A stretch of 64,000 nt of DNA. It comes from Actinomycetota bacterium. Its GTDB lineage: Bacteria > Actinomycetota > Acidimicrobiia > IMCC26256 > PALSA-555. Of the stretch, positions 30,191 to 63,094 are shown piece by piece. The notes under the pieces are model-generated. The model searched no databases, was not told where the DNA came from, and worked only from the letters and a program-made list of their open reading frames with translations. The DNA lies in the NCBI GenBank assembly GCA_016870355.1, contig VGBR01000012.1, positions 27,589 to 91,588 on the forward strand, written 5' to 3'. Within the stretch, counting starts at the first letter, position 1, and each line of letters starts with the position of its first letter. The position numbers and the translations under genes were made by a program.

Positions 30191-30261
30191 AAGGCGGCGG
30201 CGTGCCGACCGCCGGAGCACCGAGTCGTCGCCCGCGGCGGCGACCAATGGAGGCGAGGGAG
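30191..30261 (+). repeat. Imperfect direct repeat, copy 1
   Basis: About 70 bases that recur 120 bases downstream with a few substitutions and a one-base indel. The identical core is GCCGACCGCCGGAGCACCGA. This copy lies in the untranslated leader of the second MerR gene. Confidence 0.85.
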
Positions 30262-30270
30262 CACGGCCTG

Positions 30271-30840
30271 ATGACGAGCATCCAGGGCACCTTTGACGAC
30301 CACGTGCGTGCAGGCGGCGGCTCTGCCGACCGCCGGAGCACCGAGTCGTCGCCTGCGACGGCGACCAGTGGAGGCGGGGAGGGCTGGAGCGGCCCGGTTG
30401 TCTGCGAGATCGTCGGGATCACGTACCGCCAGCTCGACTACTGGGACTCCACCGACCTGCTGAAGCCGTCGCTGGCGCCAGCGGCGGGGAGTGGCACCCA
30501 GCGGCGGTACTCGTACCGAGACCTCCTCCAGCTGAAGGTCATCAAGGGACTCCTCGACGCCGGGGTGAACCTCAAGACGGCCCGCAAAGTCATCGACTCG
30601 CTGCGTGAGCGCGGCGACGATTGGCAGGTCGCCGACCTCGTGATCGACGGCGTCAACACCGTGCTCGTGCGCGACGGCGACCACCTCATCGACCTCGTCC
30701 GCAAGGGCCAGGGCGTCCTCAACGTCGTCACGGTCAGCAACATGACCCAGGACCTCGACGCCGCGATCAAGAAGCTCGCACCGGCGGGGTCGCGAAGTGA
30801 TGCCGCGCCTGGCGAACGTCGAACTGCCACCGGGGGCTGA
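30271..30840 (+). CDS. MerR-family regulator (Rv1830-like)
   Basis: A 189-residue regulator. An N-terminal Gly/Ser/Thr-rich segment of about 35 residues comes partly from a duplicated DNA repeat. The MerR helix-turn-helix follows (VCEIVGITYRQLDYWDSTDLL), then a dimerisation and effector region (LKVIKGLLDAGVNLKTARKVIDSLRERG). No metal-binding Cys is seen, so this is not a metal sensor. Its mycobacterial counterpart sits next to gcvB. I chose the ATG preceded by AGGGAG at nine bases; a GTG at 30202 is in frame but has no ribosome site and would translate the first repeat. Confidence 0.85.
   Translation: MTSIQGTFDDHVRAGGGSADRRSTESSPATATSGGGEGWSGPVVCEIVGITYRQLDYWDSTDLLKPSLAPAAGSGTQRRYSYRDLLQLKVIKGLLDAGVNLKTARKVIDSLRERGDDWQVADLVIDGVNTVLVRDGDHLIDLVRKGQGVLNVVTVSNMTQDLDAAIKKLAPAGSRSDAAPGERRTATGG
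30311..30381 (+). repeat. Imperfect direct repeat, copy 2
   Basis: Second copy of the 70-base repeat, here inside the MerR coding region, where it encodes a disordered Ser/Thr/Gly-rich N-terminus. Relative to copy 1 it has one extra base, so the two copies would be read in different frames. Confidence 0.85.
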
Positions 30841-39640: not shown

Positions 39641-39726
39641 ATTCGCTCGCTCCCTGCGGCGCAGGGTACCTGCGCCGCGGCCGGTCGCTCCCTGGCGAGT
39701 GCCTCCGCTTCGCTGCGGCACCGCGC
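39641..39726. repeat. Dispersed GGTACC-hairpin repeat, copy A
   Basis: Begins TTCGCTCGCTCCCTGCGG, then the palindromic core GCGCAGGGTACCTGCGC, then TCGCTCCCTGGCGAG. The same sequence with changes recurs at 62821 and at the right window edge. It occupies most of the 297-base gap between DUF4193 and the ThyX-like gene; the rest (39727-39882) shows nothing I can name. Confidence 0.75.
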
Positions 39727-57748: not shown

Positions 57749-59506
57749 CTACAGGTATTGACCGGTGGTGACGCGCTCGATCTGACGGCCGCCCTTGGCC
57801 TCGTCGCCTTCGGACATGAGCGTGCGCACGTAGACGATGCGCTCGCCCTTCTTGCCCGAGATCTTCGCCCAGTCGTCGGGGTTCGTCGTGTTGGGCAGAT
57901 CCTCGTGCTCGCGGTACTCCTGCTTGATCGACGCGTACAGGTCGTCGGCGGAGATGCCGCGGTCGCCGCCCTCGATCTGGCGCTTGATCGACAGCTTCTT
58001 CGAGCGCCGCACGATGTTCTCGATCATGGCTCCCGATGAGAAGTCGCGGAAGTAGAGGACTTCCTTGTCGCCGTTCTGGTACGTGACCTCGAGGAAGCGG
58101 TTGTCGTCGTCGTCGGCGTACATGCGCTCGACCGCCAACGCGATCATCTCTTCGACGGCCTTCGCCGCGTCGCCGCCGTGCTGCTCCAACTCCTTCTCGG
58201 AGATCGGCAACGTGGGCGTGAGGTACTGAGCGAAGATCTGCCGGGCGCTCGCCTGGTCAGGACGTTCGATCTTGATCTTCACGTCGAGACGACCAGGGCG
58301 CAGGATCGCCGGGTCGATGAGGTCCTCACGGTTGGACGCGCCGATCACGATCACGTTCTTGAGGCTCTCCACCCCATCGATCTCGGCGAGCAGCTGAGGA
58401 ACGATCGTGCTCTCGATATCGGACGAGATGCCGGTGCCCCGCGTGCGGAACAACGAGTCCATCTCGTCGAAGAACACGATGACAGGCACGCCCTCTTCGG
58501 ACTTTTCCCGCGCGCGCTGGAAGATCAGGCGGATCTGACGCTCGGTCTCACCGACGTACTTGTTGAGCAGCTCCGGACCCTTGATGTTCAAGAAGTACGA
58601 GCGCGTCGAGTCGTTGCCCGTCTTCTCCGCGACGCGCTTGGCGAGCGAGTTCGCCACTGCCTTCGCGATGAGCGTCTTGCCGCAGCCTGGTGGTCCGTAC
58701 AGCAAGATGCCCTTCGGCGGTTGGAGCTCGTGCTCGTGGAACAGCTCGGCGTACAGGTACGGGAGCTCGACCGCGTCGCGAATCTGCTCGATCTGATCGT
58801 CGAGGCCACCCACGTTTTCGTAGGTGACGTCGGGAACCTCTTCGAGGACGAGCTCTTCGACTTCCGGACGCGGCAGGCGCTCGACGACGAGACCCGACCG
58901 TTGGTCCATCAGCAGGTGATCGCCGGCGCGCAGCTTCTCGCCGAACAGCGCACCCGCGAGCTCGCAGACGCGCTCCTCGTCGGCGCGCCCGACGACCAGC
59001 ACCCGACGCTCGTCCTCCATCAGCTCCTTCAGCACGACGACCTCACCCGAGATCTCGAGCCCGCGCGCCAACACGACGTTGAGCGACTCGTTGAGCGCGA
59101 CCTCTTGCCCGCGCTCCATCGCGTCGAGATCGACCTCGGGGTGCACGGCCACTCGCATCTTGCGACCAGCGGTGAAGATGTCGACCGTTCCGTCGTCGTT
59201 CGCACCGAGATACGTGCCGTACGCGGACGGCGGCATCGTGAGCTTCTCGACCTCCTCGCGCAGCGCGGCGATGTGCTCGCGCGCCTCGCGCAGGGTGGCC
59301 GACAGCCGCTCGTTCTGGGAGACCGCCTGGGCGAGCTGGCCCTTGGCCTCGAGCAGGCGCTCCTCGAGCGTGCGGACCCGCTTCGGGGCGTCCTGGAGGC
59401 GCCGTCGGAGCACGACGACCTCTTCCTCCAGCGACTTGAGCTGGGACTGGAGGTCGCCGACCTGGCGCTCGTACTCGGCGAGGCGCCGCTCGTGCTCCGT
59501 CGCCAC
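57749..59506 (-). CDS. mpa: Proteasome-associated ATPase Mpa/ARC
   Basis: A 585-residue AAA+ ATPase. A coiled coil (residues 5-90) captures Pup, two OB folds follow, and the AAA domain has Walker A GPPGCGKT at 271-278 and Walker [11 protein letters not shown]. The C-terminus GQYL is the motif that opens the 20S gate. It unfolds pupylated proteins into PrcAB. The GTG has a GGAGGTG ribosome site, unlike most operon heads here. Confidence 0.97.
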
Positions 59507-59928: not shown

Positions 59929-61107
59929 TCAGCCGAGCAGACAGTCCCCGGTCGAGACCGGGGTTTCGGAACCAGCTTCCACCGCTTCGTTGATCCCATC
60001 GCTCACCTCGTCGTGCGTGAGCGCGTACGCAGTGTCGTCATCACCCGGGTCCACCGCGAACGCCATCCCCACCACCCGGCCGCGCGCATCCAAGAGCGGC
60101 GCACCCGAGTCCCCTGGCGCGAGCACCGCGGCGAGCACGAACACCTCACGTACGGTCGCCGCCCGACGGTAGATGTCGGTGCCCTCGGCGAGGATCTCCT
60201 CGGCGACGCGCGCGGGTGACTGCTGGATCGATCCACCGCCCGGGTACCCGAGCACAGCGCCGGTCATGCCGACGTCAGCGCTCACACGCTCCAGAGGATC
60301 GAGGCCGAGCCCGGGCACGTGCAACACCGCGATGTCCCGATTCGCGTCGAAGTGCACGATCGCACCTTCCACACGACGACTCGATGATGTGATCACCGTG
60401 GTGTTCTGGTCGCCCGCCACGACGTGTGCGTTCGTGACGACGACATCGTCGGCGACGACCCAGCCCGAGCCCTGCTGGATGAGCTCGCAGGCGCGGCCTT
60501 CGATCTTCACGACAGAGCGGGCCACGCGCGACGAGACGTCGGGATCGAGACCCGACCCTGGCGGCAGACCCGCGTCGTCGGGTCGCTCGTGCAGATCGAA
60601 GACCTCTGGGAACGGTGCCGCGTCAACGAGCTGCCCGAGCGTCTCGATCGAGTGCGGTGGCTCGGGCGCGTACCGGTCGACGGCTCGTACGATCGCCGAG
60701 CCCCTTGCCGCGCGCGCCGTCCACCCCGGCGAGCTCGCGATTGCCGGCGTGAGCAGCCAGATCGCGAGCAGCACCGCGAACCCGCCTGCGAGCGCGCCAG
60801 CCCACCGATCGGCGACGCTGAGCACGTTGTGTGCCGGAAGATGCCGGCGCAGCAGCGCACCGACCGCGATGCCGATCCCTTGCCCGATGACCGTCATCAA
60901 GAAGAGGAAGGCGAGCGCACCAACCAGCTTCGTCGAGGGCGTCGAGTCCCGAAGCTCGTGCACCACGTCGTCGACGAACAGCACGCCGACGAGCACGCCG
61001 AGCGAGAGTCCGAGCCACGACACGGCCCGGCTCACGAGCCCGTAGCGGTAGCCGGCCAGCGCAGCGCCGATCCCAACGACCGTGATGACCGCGTCGAGCC
61101 AGTTCAC
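59929..61107 (-). CDS. MarP-like membrane serine protease
   Basis: A 392-residue protein with four N-terminal membrane helices of the CvpA type and an extracytoplasmic trypsin-like domain. The triad is His228 (TNAHVV), Asp258 (RDIAVL) and Ser334 (APGDSGAP). Cys207 and a Cys near the end (TGDCLLG) could form the activity-controlling disulfide known in mycobacterial MarP, which protects against acid and oxidative stress. The GTG start overlaps the trmI stop (GTGA). Confidence 0.92.
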   Translation of the reverse strand: MNWLDAVITVVGIGAALAGYRYGLVSRAVSWLGLSLGVLVGVLFVDDVVHELRDSTPSTKLVGALAFLFLMTVIGQGIGIAVGALLRRHLPAHNVLSVADRWAGALAGGFAVLLAIWLLTPAIASSPGWTARAARGSAIVRAVDRYAPEPPHSIETLGQLVDAAPFPEVFDLHERPDDAGLPPGSGLDPDVSSRVARSVVKIEGRACELIQQGSGWVVADDVVVTNAHVVAGDQNTTVITSSSRRVEGAIVHFDANRDIAVLHVPGLGLDPLERVSADVGMTGAVLGYPGGGSIQQSPARVAEEILAEGTDIYRRAATVREVFVLAAVLAPGDSGAPLLDARGRVVGMAFAVDPGDDDTAYALTHDEVSDGINEAVEAGSETPVSTGDCLLG

Positions 61108-61889
61108 CCCGACGGGACGAGCAACCGTGCGCTGGTGAGGAAGCCGGTGTGCGCCACCATCCGGTGGTCGGGTCGCACGGACTGGCCCTCGACGTGCCAG
61201 GTCCGGTGGAGCACCTCGAGCGTCTGCGCCATCCCGAACGCCGACTCTTCGAGCTCTTCACGCAGCCGCGCCACCTGCCCGATCGTCGGCAGGTAGGCGA
61301 CGAGGATGCCGCCCGGGCGCAGCGCGCCCGCCGCGTGCTTCACGACCTGCCACGGTTCGGGCAGATCGAGCACCACGCGATCGAAATCGTGGTTGTCGAT
61401 GCCCTCATAGGTGTCGCGCACGTGGATGTCGAGCGGCACATCCGGACCGAGCAGCCCTTCGATGTTGCGGCGCGCGCGGTCGGCGAAGTCCTCGCGCAGC
61501 TCGTAGCCGATGACGCGCCCGGTCGGGCCGATCGCGCGCAGCAGGGCCATCGTGAGCGCGCCAGATCCGACGCCGGACTCCAGCACCTTCGCGCCAGGGA
61601 ACACATCGGCGAGCACCAAGATCGGTCCGAGGTCCTTCGGATAGATGACCTGCGCGCCCCGCGGCATCTCGAGCACGTAGTCGGCAAGCGTCGGGCTCAC
61701 TGCGGTCAAGCGGGCACCGAGTGTGGTGCGCACGGTCGAGCCGTCGGGCGCGCCGATCAAATCATCGTGCCGGACGACGCCGGTGTGCAGATGGAACTCC
61801 CCGCCGACTTCGAGCGTGACGAGATGCCGCCGCCGCTTGGCGTCGACGAGGAGCGCACGGTCCCCGACCGCAAAGGTCCCCGACGGCAC
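61104..61889 (-). CDS. trmI: tRNA (adenine-58-N1)-methyltransferase TrmI
   Basis: A 261-residue SAM methyltransferase forming m1A58 in the T-loop. The N-terminal beta domain, then KVLESGVGSGALTMALLRAIG (SAM site), VIGYELREDFADRARRNIEGL, VVLDLPEPWQVV and the LPTIGQVARLREELEESAFG helix are all typical. It is four bases from the next gene, a TtuA-like enzyme acting on position 54 of the same loop. The ATG is used. Confidence 0.95.
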   Translation of the reverse strand: MPSGTFAVGDRALLVDAKRRRHLVTLEVGGEFHLHTGVVRHDDLIGAPDGSTVRTTLGARLTAVSPTLADYVLEMPRGAQVIYPKDLGPILVLADVFPGAKVLESGVGSGALTMALLRAIGPTGRVIGYELREDFADRARRNIEGLLGPDVPLDIHVRDTYEGIDNHDFDRVVLDLPEPWQVVKHAAGALRPGGILVAYLPTIGQVARLREELEESAFGMAQTLEVLHRTWHVEGQSVRPDHRMVAHTGFLTSARLLVPSG

Positions 61890-61892
61890 GGA

Positions 61893-62816
61893 CTACTCCG
61901 CCGCTTCGGGAGCGCTCGCGGCGCGCTCTTGGAGCCGGCAGAACGCACAAAGGCTGCCCGTGGTCGTCGGGCTCCCACACGACTCGCACGCGCCGAGTGC
62001 GGCGCGCTCTTCGTCCGCACTCGTCGAGAAGAGAGGATGCGCGCGGTCGATGAACCCAAACACGAACGCGGCCTTTGCCCCGGGCGACCGATCCTCGAGC
62101 GCGTTGAGAACCTCTTTGTATCCGAGGTGGCGATTGCCCTCCGCCATCGGACACTCCTCGACCTGGTAGTCGATGCCACGGATGACGCAGTACGCGGCCA
62201 TCTCGCGTTCACCAAGCCTGATCAGTGGTTTCACCTTGCGCACGAACCCCAGAGCGGTCGGGAGCACCGGGTGCTGGCGTCCGAGGTACCCGGTCTCCCA
62301 ACGCAGCACGTTGCCGAGCAAGACGGCCGCCTCGTCATCGAGATTGTGCCCAGTGGCGACGACGTCGTACCCGTGGTCACGCGCGAACGAGTTGAAGAGA
62401 TGACGCTTCGAAAGACCACACGCACCGCAGGGCGCACGGTGCGTGACGCTCGCGGCGACCGGGATCGTGAACCCATCGTCCTGGCCGAGGTCGACCTCGT
62501 GGAGCTTCAGTCCGCGGCTGCTCGCGTAGGCGCGCGTGTGCTGCAGCGATTCGTCGGAGTACCCGTCGATGCCGAGACCGAGATACAGCCCCTCCGCCGC
62601 GTACTCGAGGTCGGTGAGGAGGTCCCACAGCGCGAGCGAGTCCTTCCCGCCCGACACCGCGACAAGCACCCGCTCCGCCGGATCCATCATCTTGTGCTCG
62701 TGAACGGCGCGCTTCACCTGTTCCCGGCAGTGCGTGACGAAGTGGTCGCCACAGAAAGCCGCGTTGTGACGCCGGATGTCGATCACCGCTGGCCCGCGGC
62801 AGACCCGACACTTCAT
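61893..62816 (-). CDS. ttuA: tRNA 2-thiouridine-54 synthetase, TtuA-like
   Basis: A 307-residue PP-loop enzyme of the TtuA/Ncs6 group. Zinc fingers at both ends (CRVC with CGDH; CESC with CAFC), the PP-loop SGGKDS at 55-60, and cluster ligands Cys130, Cys133 (PCGACG) and Cys222 (ECPMAEG), which match the positions known in Thermus TtuA. It adenylates U54 of tRNA and thiolates it using a sulfur carrier. The carrier gene is adjacent (two bases), and trmI is co-directional, so the three form a T-loop modification set. Confidence 0.9.
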   Translation of the reverse strand: MKCRVCRGPAVIDIRRHNAAFCGDHFVTHCREQVKRAVHEHKMMDPAERVLVAVSGGKDSLALWDLLTDLEYAAEGLYLGLGIDGYSDESLQHTRAYASSRGLKLHEVDLGQDDGFTIPVAASVTHRAPCGACGLSKRHLFNSFARDHGYDVVATGHNLDDEAAVLLGNVLRWETGYLGRQHPVLPTALGFVRKVKPLIRLGEREMAAYCVIRGIDYQVEECPMAEGNRHLGYKEVLNALEDRSPGAKAAFVFGFIDRAHPLFSTSADEERAALGACESCGSPTTTGSLCAFCRLQERAASAPEAAE

Positions 62817-62818
62817 CT

Positions 62819-63094
62819 CTACTCGCTCGCTCTCTGCGGCCGGGGATACCCCGTCCGCGGGCGTTCGCTCGCTGGCGAGCTCCCTTCGGTCGCCGCGTCG
62901 GCGCCGCCAGAGATGACGGGGCGGATCTCGACTTCAGCATCGTCAGCGATACGGGCATCGCGAGCAACGAGCTCGTCGCCGACGATCACGAGCACCGACT
63001 CTGGATTCAGGTCGAGTCGACCCAGGAGCGCATGCACGGTGAGCGGACCGTCGATCTGGAGCTCACGCCGCGGGTTGCGCAGCAAGACATTCAC
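62819..63094 (-). CDS. Sulfur carrier (ThiS/MoaD/TtuB-like) with C-terminal tail
   Basis: A 91-residue beta-grasp protein. The start NVLLRNPRRELQID and VLVIVGDELVARD are typical of ThiS/TtuB, and the thiocarboxylate Gly-Gly is at residues 63-64 (RPVISGG). Carriers end at that pair, but here 27 more residues follow (from ADAATEGSSPASERP to the stop), encoded by a dispersed repeat. Activity would need proteolytic removal of the tail. The GTG start is chosen because it gives the usual N-terminus; a longer frame adds 17 residues. It precedes ttuA by two bases. Confidence 0.8.
   Translation of the reverse strand: MNVLLRNPRRELQIDGPLTVHALLGRLDLNPESVLVIVGDELVARDARIADDAEVEIRPVISGGADAATEGSSPASERPRTGYPRPQRASE
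62821..62905. repeat. Dispersed GGTACC-hairpin repeat, copy B
   Basis: TCGCTCGCTCTCTGCGGC, a hairpin core (CGGGG-ATA-CCCCG), then TTCGCTCGCTGGCGAG, parallel to copy A in order and spacing. It ends at the Gly-Gly codons of the sulfur carrier and supplies its tail. Confidence 0.7.

What the first reader, a model, noticed from the sequence alone, without database searches (positions are those of the whole stretch)
62819..63094. Sulfur carrier with its Gly-Gly end buried by a repeat-encoded tail
The beta-grasp carrier ends in Gly63-Gly64, the pair that must be free to carry a thiocarboxylate. Here 27 residues follow, and they are encoded by copy B of the dispersed repeat, which begins just after the Gly-Gly codons. 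Either a protease trims it (as JAMM-type enzymes do for some ThiS-like carriers), or the tail has blocked the system, or the stop codon was lost by the insertion.
Basis: partly seen in the sequence, partly recalled or inferred. Interest (0 to 1): 0.75.

Follow-up and report, generated by a model that had tools for sequence, protein, structure and literature searches.

The report
Capped tRNA-sulfur carrier with repeat-encoded tail
A bacterial sulfur-carrier protein has its working end (Gly-Gly) covered by 27 extra amino acids encoded by a dispersed DNA repeat, but nearly all its relatives also have that end covered, by a couple of residues or even by a whole partner enzyme, so it is most likely made as a precursor that a protease trims.

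Summary
The 62819-63094 (-) gene encodes a TtuB-type carrier ending ...VISGG plus 27 residues, and the tail is almost entirely one copy of a dispersed hairpin repeat (about 40 copies in the genome). The reading "the repeat buried the Gly-Gly" is only partly right. In 62 orthologues found among 100 relatives the Gly-Gly is always kept, yet 52 have residues after it, most often exactly two, and the first is Ala or Ser in 49 of 52. In the wider phylum 30 of 65 carriers are fused in one reading frame to TtuA (SGG-A...-TtuA). Burial is the lineage's normal state; the repeat only lengthened the cap. The core is under purifying selection, TtuA is intact, and the genome has one E1 and one JAMM peptidase with a complete motif. 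JAMM is present in 63 of 66 carrier-bearing genomes against 166 of 330 others. Best explanation: a capped precursor trimmed after Gly64, probably by JAMM, like QbsE/QbsD, PtmS2/PtmS1 and the Deinococcus MoaD-MoaE fusion. Cleavage itself is not shown. "Blocked" and "sequencing error" are unlikely. New variant of a known kind; the TtuB-TtuA fusions are the most interesting part.

The parts
62903..63094 (-). TtuB-like sulfur carrier, beta-grasp core residues 1-64 ending in Gly63-Gly64
   Evidence: ORF; Pfam ThiS; TtuB 5ztb/5gha by sequence and fold; 62 orthologues; AF2 core pLDDT 84-89
62903..62908 (-). Gly63-Gly64 codons
   Evidence: Invariant in 62 of 62 orthologues of relatives and in all 65 further loci of the phylum
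62822..62902 (-). 27-residue C-terminal cap ADAATEGSSPASERPRTGYPRPQRASE; Ala right after Gly-Gly as in most orthologues
   Evidence: Translation; disordered in the model, pLDDT about 50
62819..62821 (-). TAG stop at the end of the repeat, two bases before the ttuA ATG
   Evidence: Sequence; junction comparison
62822..62897 (-). copy of the dispersed palindromic repeat that encodes the cap
   Evidence: About 40 matches in own genome, alignment; also in other genomes of the genus and order
62836..62858 (-). covarying hairpin of the repeat (arms 62836-62845 and 62849-62858, loop 3 nt)
   Evidence: Pair counts over 30 copies with compensatory changes at pairs 4-7 and 9
61893..62816 (-). ttuA: tRNA 2-thiolation enzyme, partner of the carrier, intact PP-loop SGGKDS and CxxC motifs
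   Evidence: Pfam TtuA_LIM_N and ATP_bind_3; NCBIfam TtuA-type model is the best hit, below its cut-off; sequence
61104..61889 (-). trmI-like tRNA m1A58 methyltransferase gene, same direction
   Evidence: Pfam GCD14 and TrmI-like_N

Best explanation
The gene encodes a TtuB-type sulfur carrier for tRNA 2-thiolation, made as a capped precursor. Its partner is TtuA, encoded next door. In this lineage the carrier's Gly-Gly is normally followed by one to six residues, apparently because the carrier stop codon overlaps the ttuA start, and in many other genomes of the phylum by TtuA itself. A protease must cut after Gly64 before the E1 enzyme can adenylate and thiocarboxylate it; the single JAMM peptidase of the genome is the likely one. 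In this species a dispersed hairpin repeat inserted in the tolerant seam between Gly-Gly and ttuA, so the cap is 27 residues long and its stop codon comes from the repeat. Shown: the sequence, the repeat, conserved Gly-Gly behind variable caps, the fusions, gene content and JAMM co-occurrence. Inferred: that cleavage happens, that JAMM does it, and that the modified base is 2-thio-T54 of tRNA.
For: All 62 carriers from relatives keep SGG although 52 have residues after it; 30 of 62 have exactly two, and the first is Ala or Ser in 49 of 52. Short caps go with the 4-nt RTGA overlap with ttuA (36 of 37 against 16 of 25, Fisher p=7e-4). Core dN/dS 0.18-0.26 against neighbours. Tail disordered and accessible. 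JAMM gene with HSH-x7-SATD motif beside cysO and cysM; one strong E1 match. JAMM in 63 of 66 carrier genomes against 166 of 330 without (p=1.6e-13); one JAMM-less complete genome, G264, has an exposed Gly-Gly. Precedents: capped carriers PtmS2 and PtmS3 with a JAMM enzyme, and QbsD (PMC6006322); MoaD-MoaE cut by DRJAMM (PMC8832034); Thermus JAMM mutant with half the tRNA thiouridine (PMC3980101).
Against: No cleavage data. JAMM sits with cysO, not with ttuB, so its substrate is inferred. The JAMM association follows phylogeny, and JAMM-CysO loci are common in the phylum. G109 has a fused carrier but only sub-cut-off JAMM hits. The conserved Ala/Ser after Gly-Gly could reflect constraints other than a cleavage site.
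Confidence: 0.66

Rival explanations
1. The precursor is trimmed, but by other peptidases (Clp, Pup-proteasome or carboxypeptidases nibbling a disordered tail up to the folded core), so JAMM is not needed.
For: Tail is disordered in the model and its sequence is unconserved beyond the first residue; JAMM is not linked to ttuB in the genome.
Against: Exact stopping after Gly64 needs a specific enzyme; TtuA fusions with an apparently intact TtuA need an endopeptidase; known capped carriers use JAMM (PMC6006322, PMC8832034).
Confidence: 0.15
2. The repeat insertion has blocked the carrier: the system is dead or dying in this species.
For: Caps longer than 12 residues occur in only three of 62 relatives (own, G001, G010).
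Against: Core under purifying selection; ttuA intact; E1 and JAMM present; relatives with caps and fusions keep everything. A very recent insertion would not yet show in dN/dS.
Confidence: 0.1
3. The Gly-Gly works without being C-terminal: the carrier is no longer thiocarboxylated and acts only as a bound domain or chaperone of TtuA.
For: Frequent fusion to TtuA and tight gene pairing.
Against: Gly-Gly would not need to be invariant in about 118 distinct loci; 10 of 62 and 5 of 65 still end exactly at Gly-Gly.
Confidence: 0.06
4. Sequencing or assembly error that removed a stop codon right after Gly-Gly.
For: The genome is a draft of 31 contigs, probably a metagenome bin like several relatives.
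Against: The tail is a standard repeat copy in standard orientation with its usual end; G001 of the same genus has a repeat at the same site.
Confidence: 0.02

Closest known systems
TtuB of Thermus thermophilus (partner TtuA, activator TtuC)
   Same: Beta-grasp fold, SGG motif, gene partner TtuA, single E1 and JAMM in the genome
   Different: Thermus TtuB ends at Gly-Gly (chain 5ztb ends there); here 27 residues follow, and about two residues in most relatives
Capped sulfur carriers QbsE/QbsD, PtmS2 (GG-MV) and PtmS3 (GG-C) with JAMM PtmS1 (PMC6006322)
   Same: One or a few residues after Gly-Gly in most relatives; JAMM protease in the genome
   Different: Those serve thiocarboxylate natural products, and ptmS1 is clustered with the carrier; here the carrier pairs with TtuA, and the cap is up to 64 residues or a whole enzyme
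MoaD-MoaE fusion of Deinococcus radiodurans cut by DRJAMM (PMC8832034)
   Same: Carrier fused through Gly-Gly to the enzyme it serves, as in the TtuB-TtuA fusions found here
   Different: Molybdopterin pathway; cleavage was shown there, not here
Palindromic repeats in coding regions: Rickettsia RPE and GTAG/CGTC-tagged REPs (PMC3733652)
   Same: Short hairpin repeats between genes, sometimes inside ORFs, and supplying TAG stop codons to flanking genes
   Different: Other sequence and phylum; GTAG tag not conserved in the copies; no REP-associated transposase found in this genome

Membership tests
TtuB-type sulfur carrier | Ubiquitin-like beta-grasp domain closest to TtuB | tested here: met
   Pfam ThiS, TtuB best by sequence and by fold
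TtuB-type sulfur carrier | Gene partner TtuA and a ThiF/MoeB-type activator in the genome | tested here: met
   ttuA adjacent, one strong ThiF match
TtuB-type sulfur carrier | C-terminal Gly free in the mature protein and thiocarboxylated | not testable with these tools
   The gene product has 27 residues after Gly64; maturation needs an experiment
Capped sulfur carrier (QbsE/PtmS2 kind) | Residues after a conserved Gly-Gly in the gene product | tested here: met
   27 residues; 52 of 62 relatives capped
Capped sulfur carrier (QbsE/PtmS2 kind) | JAMM protease that removes the cap | tested here: inconclusive
   JAMM present with complete motif but beside cysO on another contig (C2, not C12); activity untested
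REP (GTAG) element | Stem-loop with a GTAG tag at one foot | tested here: not met
   Stem-loop present and covarying, GTAG not conserved
REP (GTAG) element | RAYT tyrosine transposase in the genome | tested here: not met
   No PF01797 match in own genome or in the other repeat-bearing relatives
Rickettsia-palindromic-element-like repeat | In-frame copies inside protein-coding genes | tested here: met
   Copies within acyl-CoA dehydrogenase (L035), SnoaL-like protein (L033), ribosomal L10 C-terminal part (L023); works like RPE, homology not tested

The most novel reading that the evidence does not exclude
Across much of the phylum the tRNA-thiolation carrier TtuB is made as a ubiquitin-like precursor whose Gly-Gly is released by a JAMM protease from caps ranging from two residues to the entire TtuA enzyme. 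TtuB-TtuA polyproteins would be a bacterial counterpart of ubiquitin-ribosomal protein fusions, and because the cap is discarded it is a safe landing site for dispersed repeats.
Probability: 0.45. Interest if true: 0.68.

Novelty: new variant of a known kind. Interest (0 to 1): 0.55.

Why it matters
It shows that buried Gly-Gly is the rule, not an accident, for this carrier in its lineage, and predicts one directly testable step (JAMM cleavage after Gly64) in tRNA thiolation. The TtuB-TtuA fusions, for which I found no description in the held literature, suggest a ubiquitin-like precursor economy in ordinary bacteria. It also gives a clear example of a dispersed repeat tolerated inside a gene because it falls on a stretch that is probably discarded.

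Tried and rejected
Rfam search of repeat loci: nothing above chance. Shine-Dalgarno idea, that the Gly-Gly codons act as the ttuA ribosome site: Gly63 codons show no enrichment of GGA/GGG over other glycines (p=0.75), so dropped. RAYT/REP origin of the repeat: no PF01797 in the genome. One insertion shared by the genus: the TtuA tree puts G000 outside (G001,(G002,G003)) and only G000 and G001 carry a repeat there, so either one gain and a later loss or two gains; not resolved. Two literature look-ups failed on a search-term rule. The genome-contig scan gave only nine loci. Paper searches found no TtuB-TtuA fusion and no report of this repeat, but only open-licence papers are held.

Full report
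WHAT IS THERE. The window is G000:C12:27589-91588 of a 2.8-Mb draft genome; several of its relatives are lake metagenome-assembled genomes named Acidimicrobiia or Actinomycetota. On the minus strand, 63094-62819, lies a 91-residue ORF that starts with GTG, as many orthologues do. Residues 1-64 are a ThiS/MoaD-like domain (Pfam ThiS, E=6.7e-7) whose nearest solved relatives by sequence and by fold are Thermus TtuB chains. An AlphaFold2 model gives the core pLDDT 84-89 and shows residues 61-91 as disordered. The next gene, two bases after the TAG, is ttuA (TtuA_LIM_N plus PP-loop ATPase), followed by a TrmI-like methyltransferase gene. In Thermus, TtuA/TtuB make the 2-thio group of T54 in tRNA (PMC3980101), so the gene order makes biological sense.

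THE TAIL IS A REPEAT. A search of the genome with the tail DNA gives about 40 other matches. An alignment of 30 shows an element of roughly 75-100 nt with a 10-bp hairpin around GGG-TAT-CCC. Stem pairs 4-7 and 9 occur as C-G, G-C, A-T or T-A in different copies with pairing kept in 26-30 of 30, so the structure is real. Most copies fill the gap between neighbouring, mostly co-directional genes, and the 3' end often abuts the next start codon. Some are read in frame: inside an acyl-CoA dehydrogenase (L035), inside a SnoaL-like protein (L033), in the C-terminal part of ribosomal protein L10 (L023), and as the C-terminal end of an AMP-binding enzyme (L036). This is like the Rickettsia palindromic elements and REPs, which are also known to lie in ORFs and to supply TAG stops (PMC3733652). 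The same repeat family is found in three congeners and in several other families of the order, patchily. It lacks a conserved GTAG tag, and no RAYT transposase gene was found, so I do not file it as a REP.

BURIED GLY-GLY IS NORMAL HERE. The carrier was found in 62 of 100 genomes, the own one included, and I read all C-termini. All 62 keep SGG. Only 10 stop there. Fifty-two have more residues: one to six in 47 (exactly two in 30), and ten or more in five (own 27, G001 64, G010 55, G009 12, G007 10). The first residue after Gly-Gly is Ala (33) or Ser (16) in 49 of 52; the second is variable. Thirty-six of 37 genes with a 4-nt RTGA overlap between carrier stop and ttuA start have a cap, against 16 of 25 without (Fisher p=7e-4), so the short caps are tied to that overlap. 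As a control, CysO carriers in eight of these genomes end exactly at Gly-Gly in six and at GGAG in two, and another carrier of the own genome (L132) ends at Gly-Gly. So capping is a feature of the TtuB-like carrier, not of all carriers here.

FUSIONS. A profile search of 396 genomes of the phylum found the carrier in 66. I read 65 loci other than the window's own. A Gly-Gly that stays invariant in front of an entire enzyme is hard to explain unless it is exposed by cutting. Nine genomes are in both samples, and closely related genomes are not independent.

WHO WOULD CUT. The genome has one Prok-JAB gene (G000:C2:161061-161384), a 162-residue protein with the motif HSH-x7-SATD, directly before cysO and a cysteine synthase gene. 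It has one strong ThiF/MoeB-type E1. In the 396-genome sample JAMM is found in 63 of 66 carrier-bearing genomes and in 166 of the other 330 (p=1.6e-13). The three exceptions are a complete genome whose carrier already ends at Gly-Gly (G264), an 81%-complete genome (G313), and G109, which has a fusion and only sub-cut-off JAMM hits. The last one argues mildly against JAMM being obligatory. Published work shows the kind of reaction proposed: capped carriers need a protease such as QbsD (PMC6006322), Deinococcus MoaD-MoaE is cut by DRJAMM to leave a C-terminal Gly (PMC8832034), archaeal CsUb precursor is cut after Gly-Gly by CsRpn11 (PMC6043591), and a JAMM deletion in Thermus halves tRNA thiouridine and alters TtuB conjugates (PMC3980101).

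HISTORY OF THE INSERTION. The nearest genomes form G000,(G001,(G002,G003)) in a TtuA tree (bootstrap 89 and 94). G000 and G001 both have the repeat starting a few bases after Gly-Gly; G002 and G003 have two-residue caps with the ttuA overlap. In G001 the repeat is followed by a second copy of the carrier's last codons, EIRPVISGGARP, so that its product ends again near a Gly-Gly; over the ten codons EIRPVISGGA the two copies match at 27 of 30 bases and differ only at third positions. One insertion with a duplicated flank, later lost in G002/G003 and trimmed in G000, would explain this, as would two insertions. G010 has an unrelated, perfect 84-nt tandem at the same seam, which may be an assembly product. 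Repeated hits on the same seam fit a stretch of protein that is discarded.

IS IT DEAD? The core's dN/dS against six relatives is 0.18-0.26, and all partners are present. A very recent block cannot be excluded by this, but nothing supports it.

VERDICT. The interpretation changes: the repeat lengthened a cap that the lineage already had. The most likely mechanism is endoproteolytic release of Gly64, probably by the JAMM enzyme, followed by E1 activation and sulfur transfer to TtuA. The cutting step is inferred, not shown.

Noticed in passing
L181, L184-L186, L188, L189, L194, L195, L197, L199, L201 and further loci: TtuB-like carrier fused in one ORF to TtuA (380-419 aa in those measured) in 30 of 65 phylum loci, junction SGG-A/S; no description found in the held papers.
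   Followed up: partly
L049:1300-1560 (-): In G001 the repeat at the carrier's end is flanked by a second copy of the codons for EIRPVISGGA (27 of 30 bases, differences only at third positions), like a long target duplication.
   Followed up: partly
L035, L033, L023, L036: In-frame copies of the same repeat inside or at the end of an acyl-CoA dehydrogenase, a SnoaL-like protein, ribosomal protein L10 and an AMP-binding enzyme.
   Followed up: partly
30203-30258 and 30324-30379: A second repeat type (93% identical pair, 121 nt apart) encodes the N-terminal extension of a MerR-type regulator; a similar module sits in the middle of the G001 insertion.
   Followed up: partly
39642-39722 (-): Another copy of the carrier-tail repeat in the window, upstream of or between genes.
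   Followed up: no
L010, L012, L013, L017, L028: The repeat's 3' end abuts the likely start codon of acyl-CoA dehydrogenase-like genes in about five of 30 copies; whether it affects translation is unknown.
   Followed up: no
L047:1660-1860: G010 carries a perfect 84-nt tandem duplication at the same carrier/ttuA seam, from a different repeat sequence; recent event or assembly artefact.
   Followed up: no
57749-59506 (-): AAA ATPase that looks like the proteasome-associated ARC/Mpa (by eye, not tested), in the same gene neighbourhood as trmI-ttuA-ttuB.
   Followed up: no
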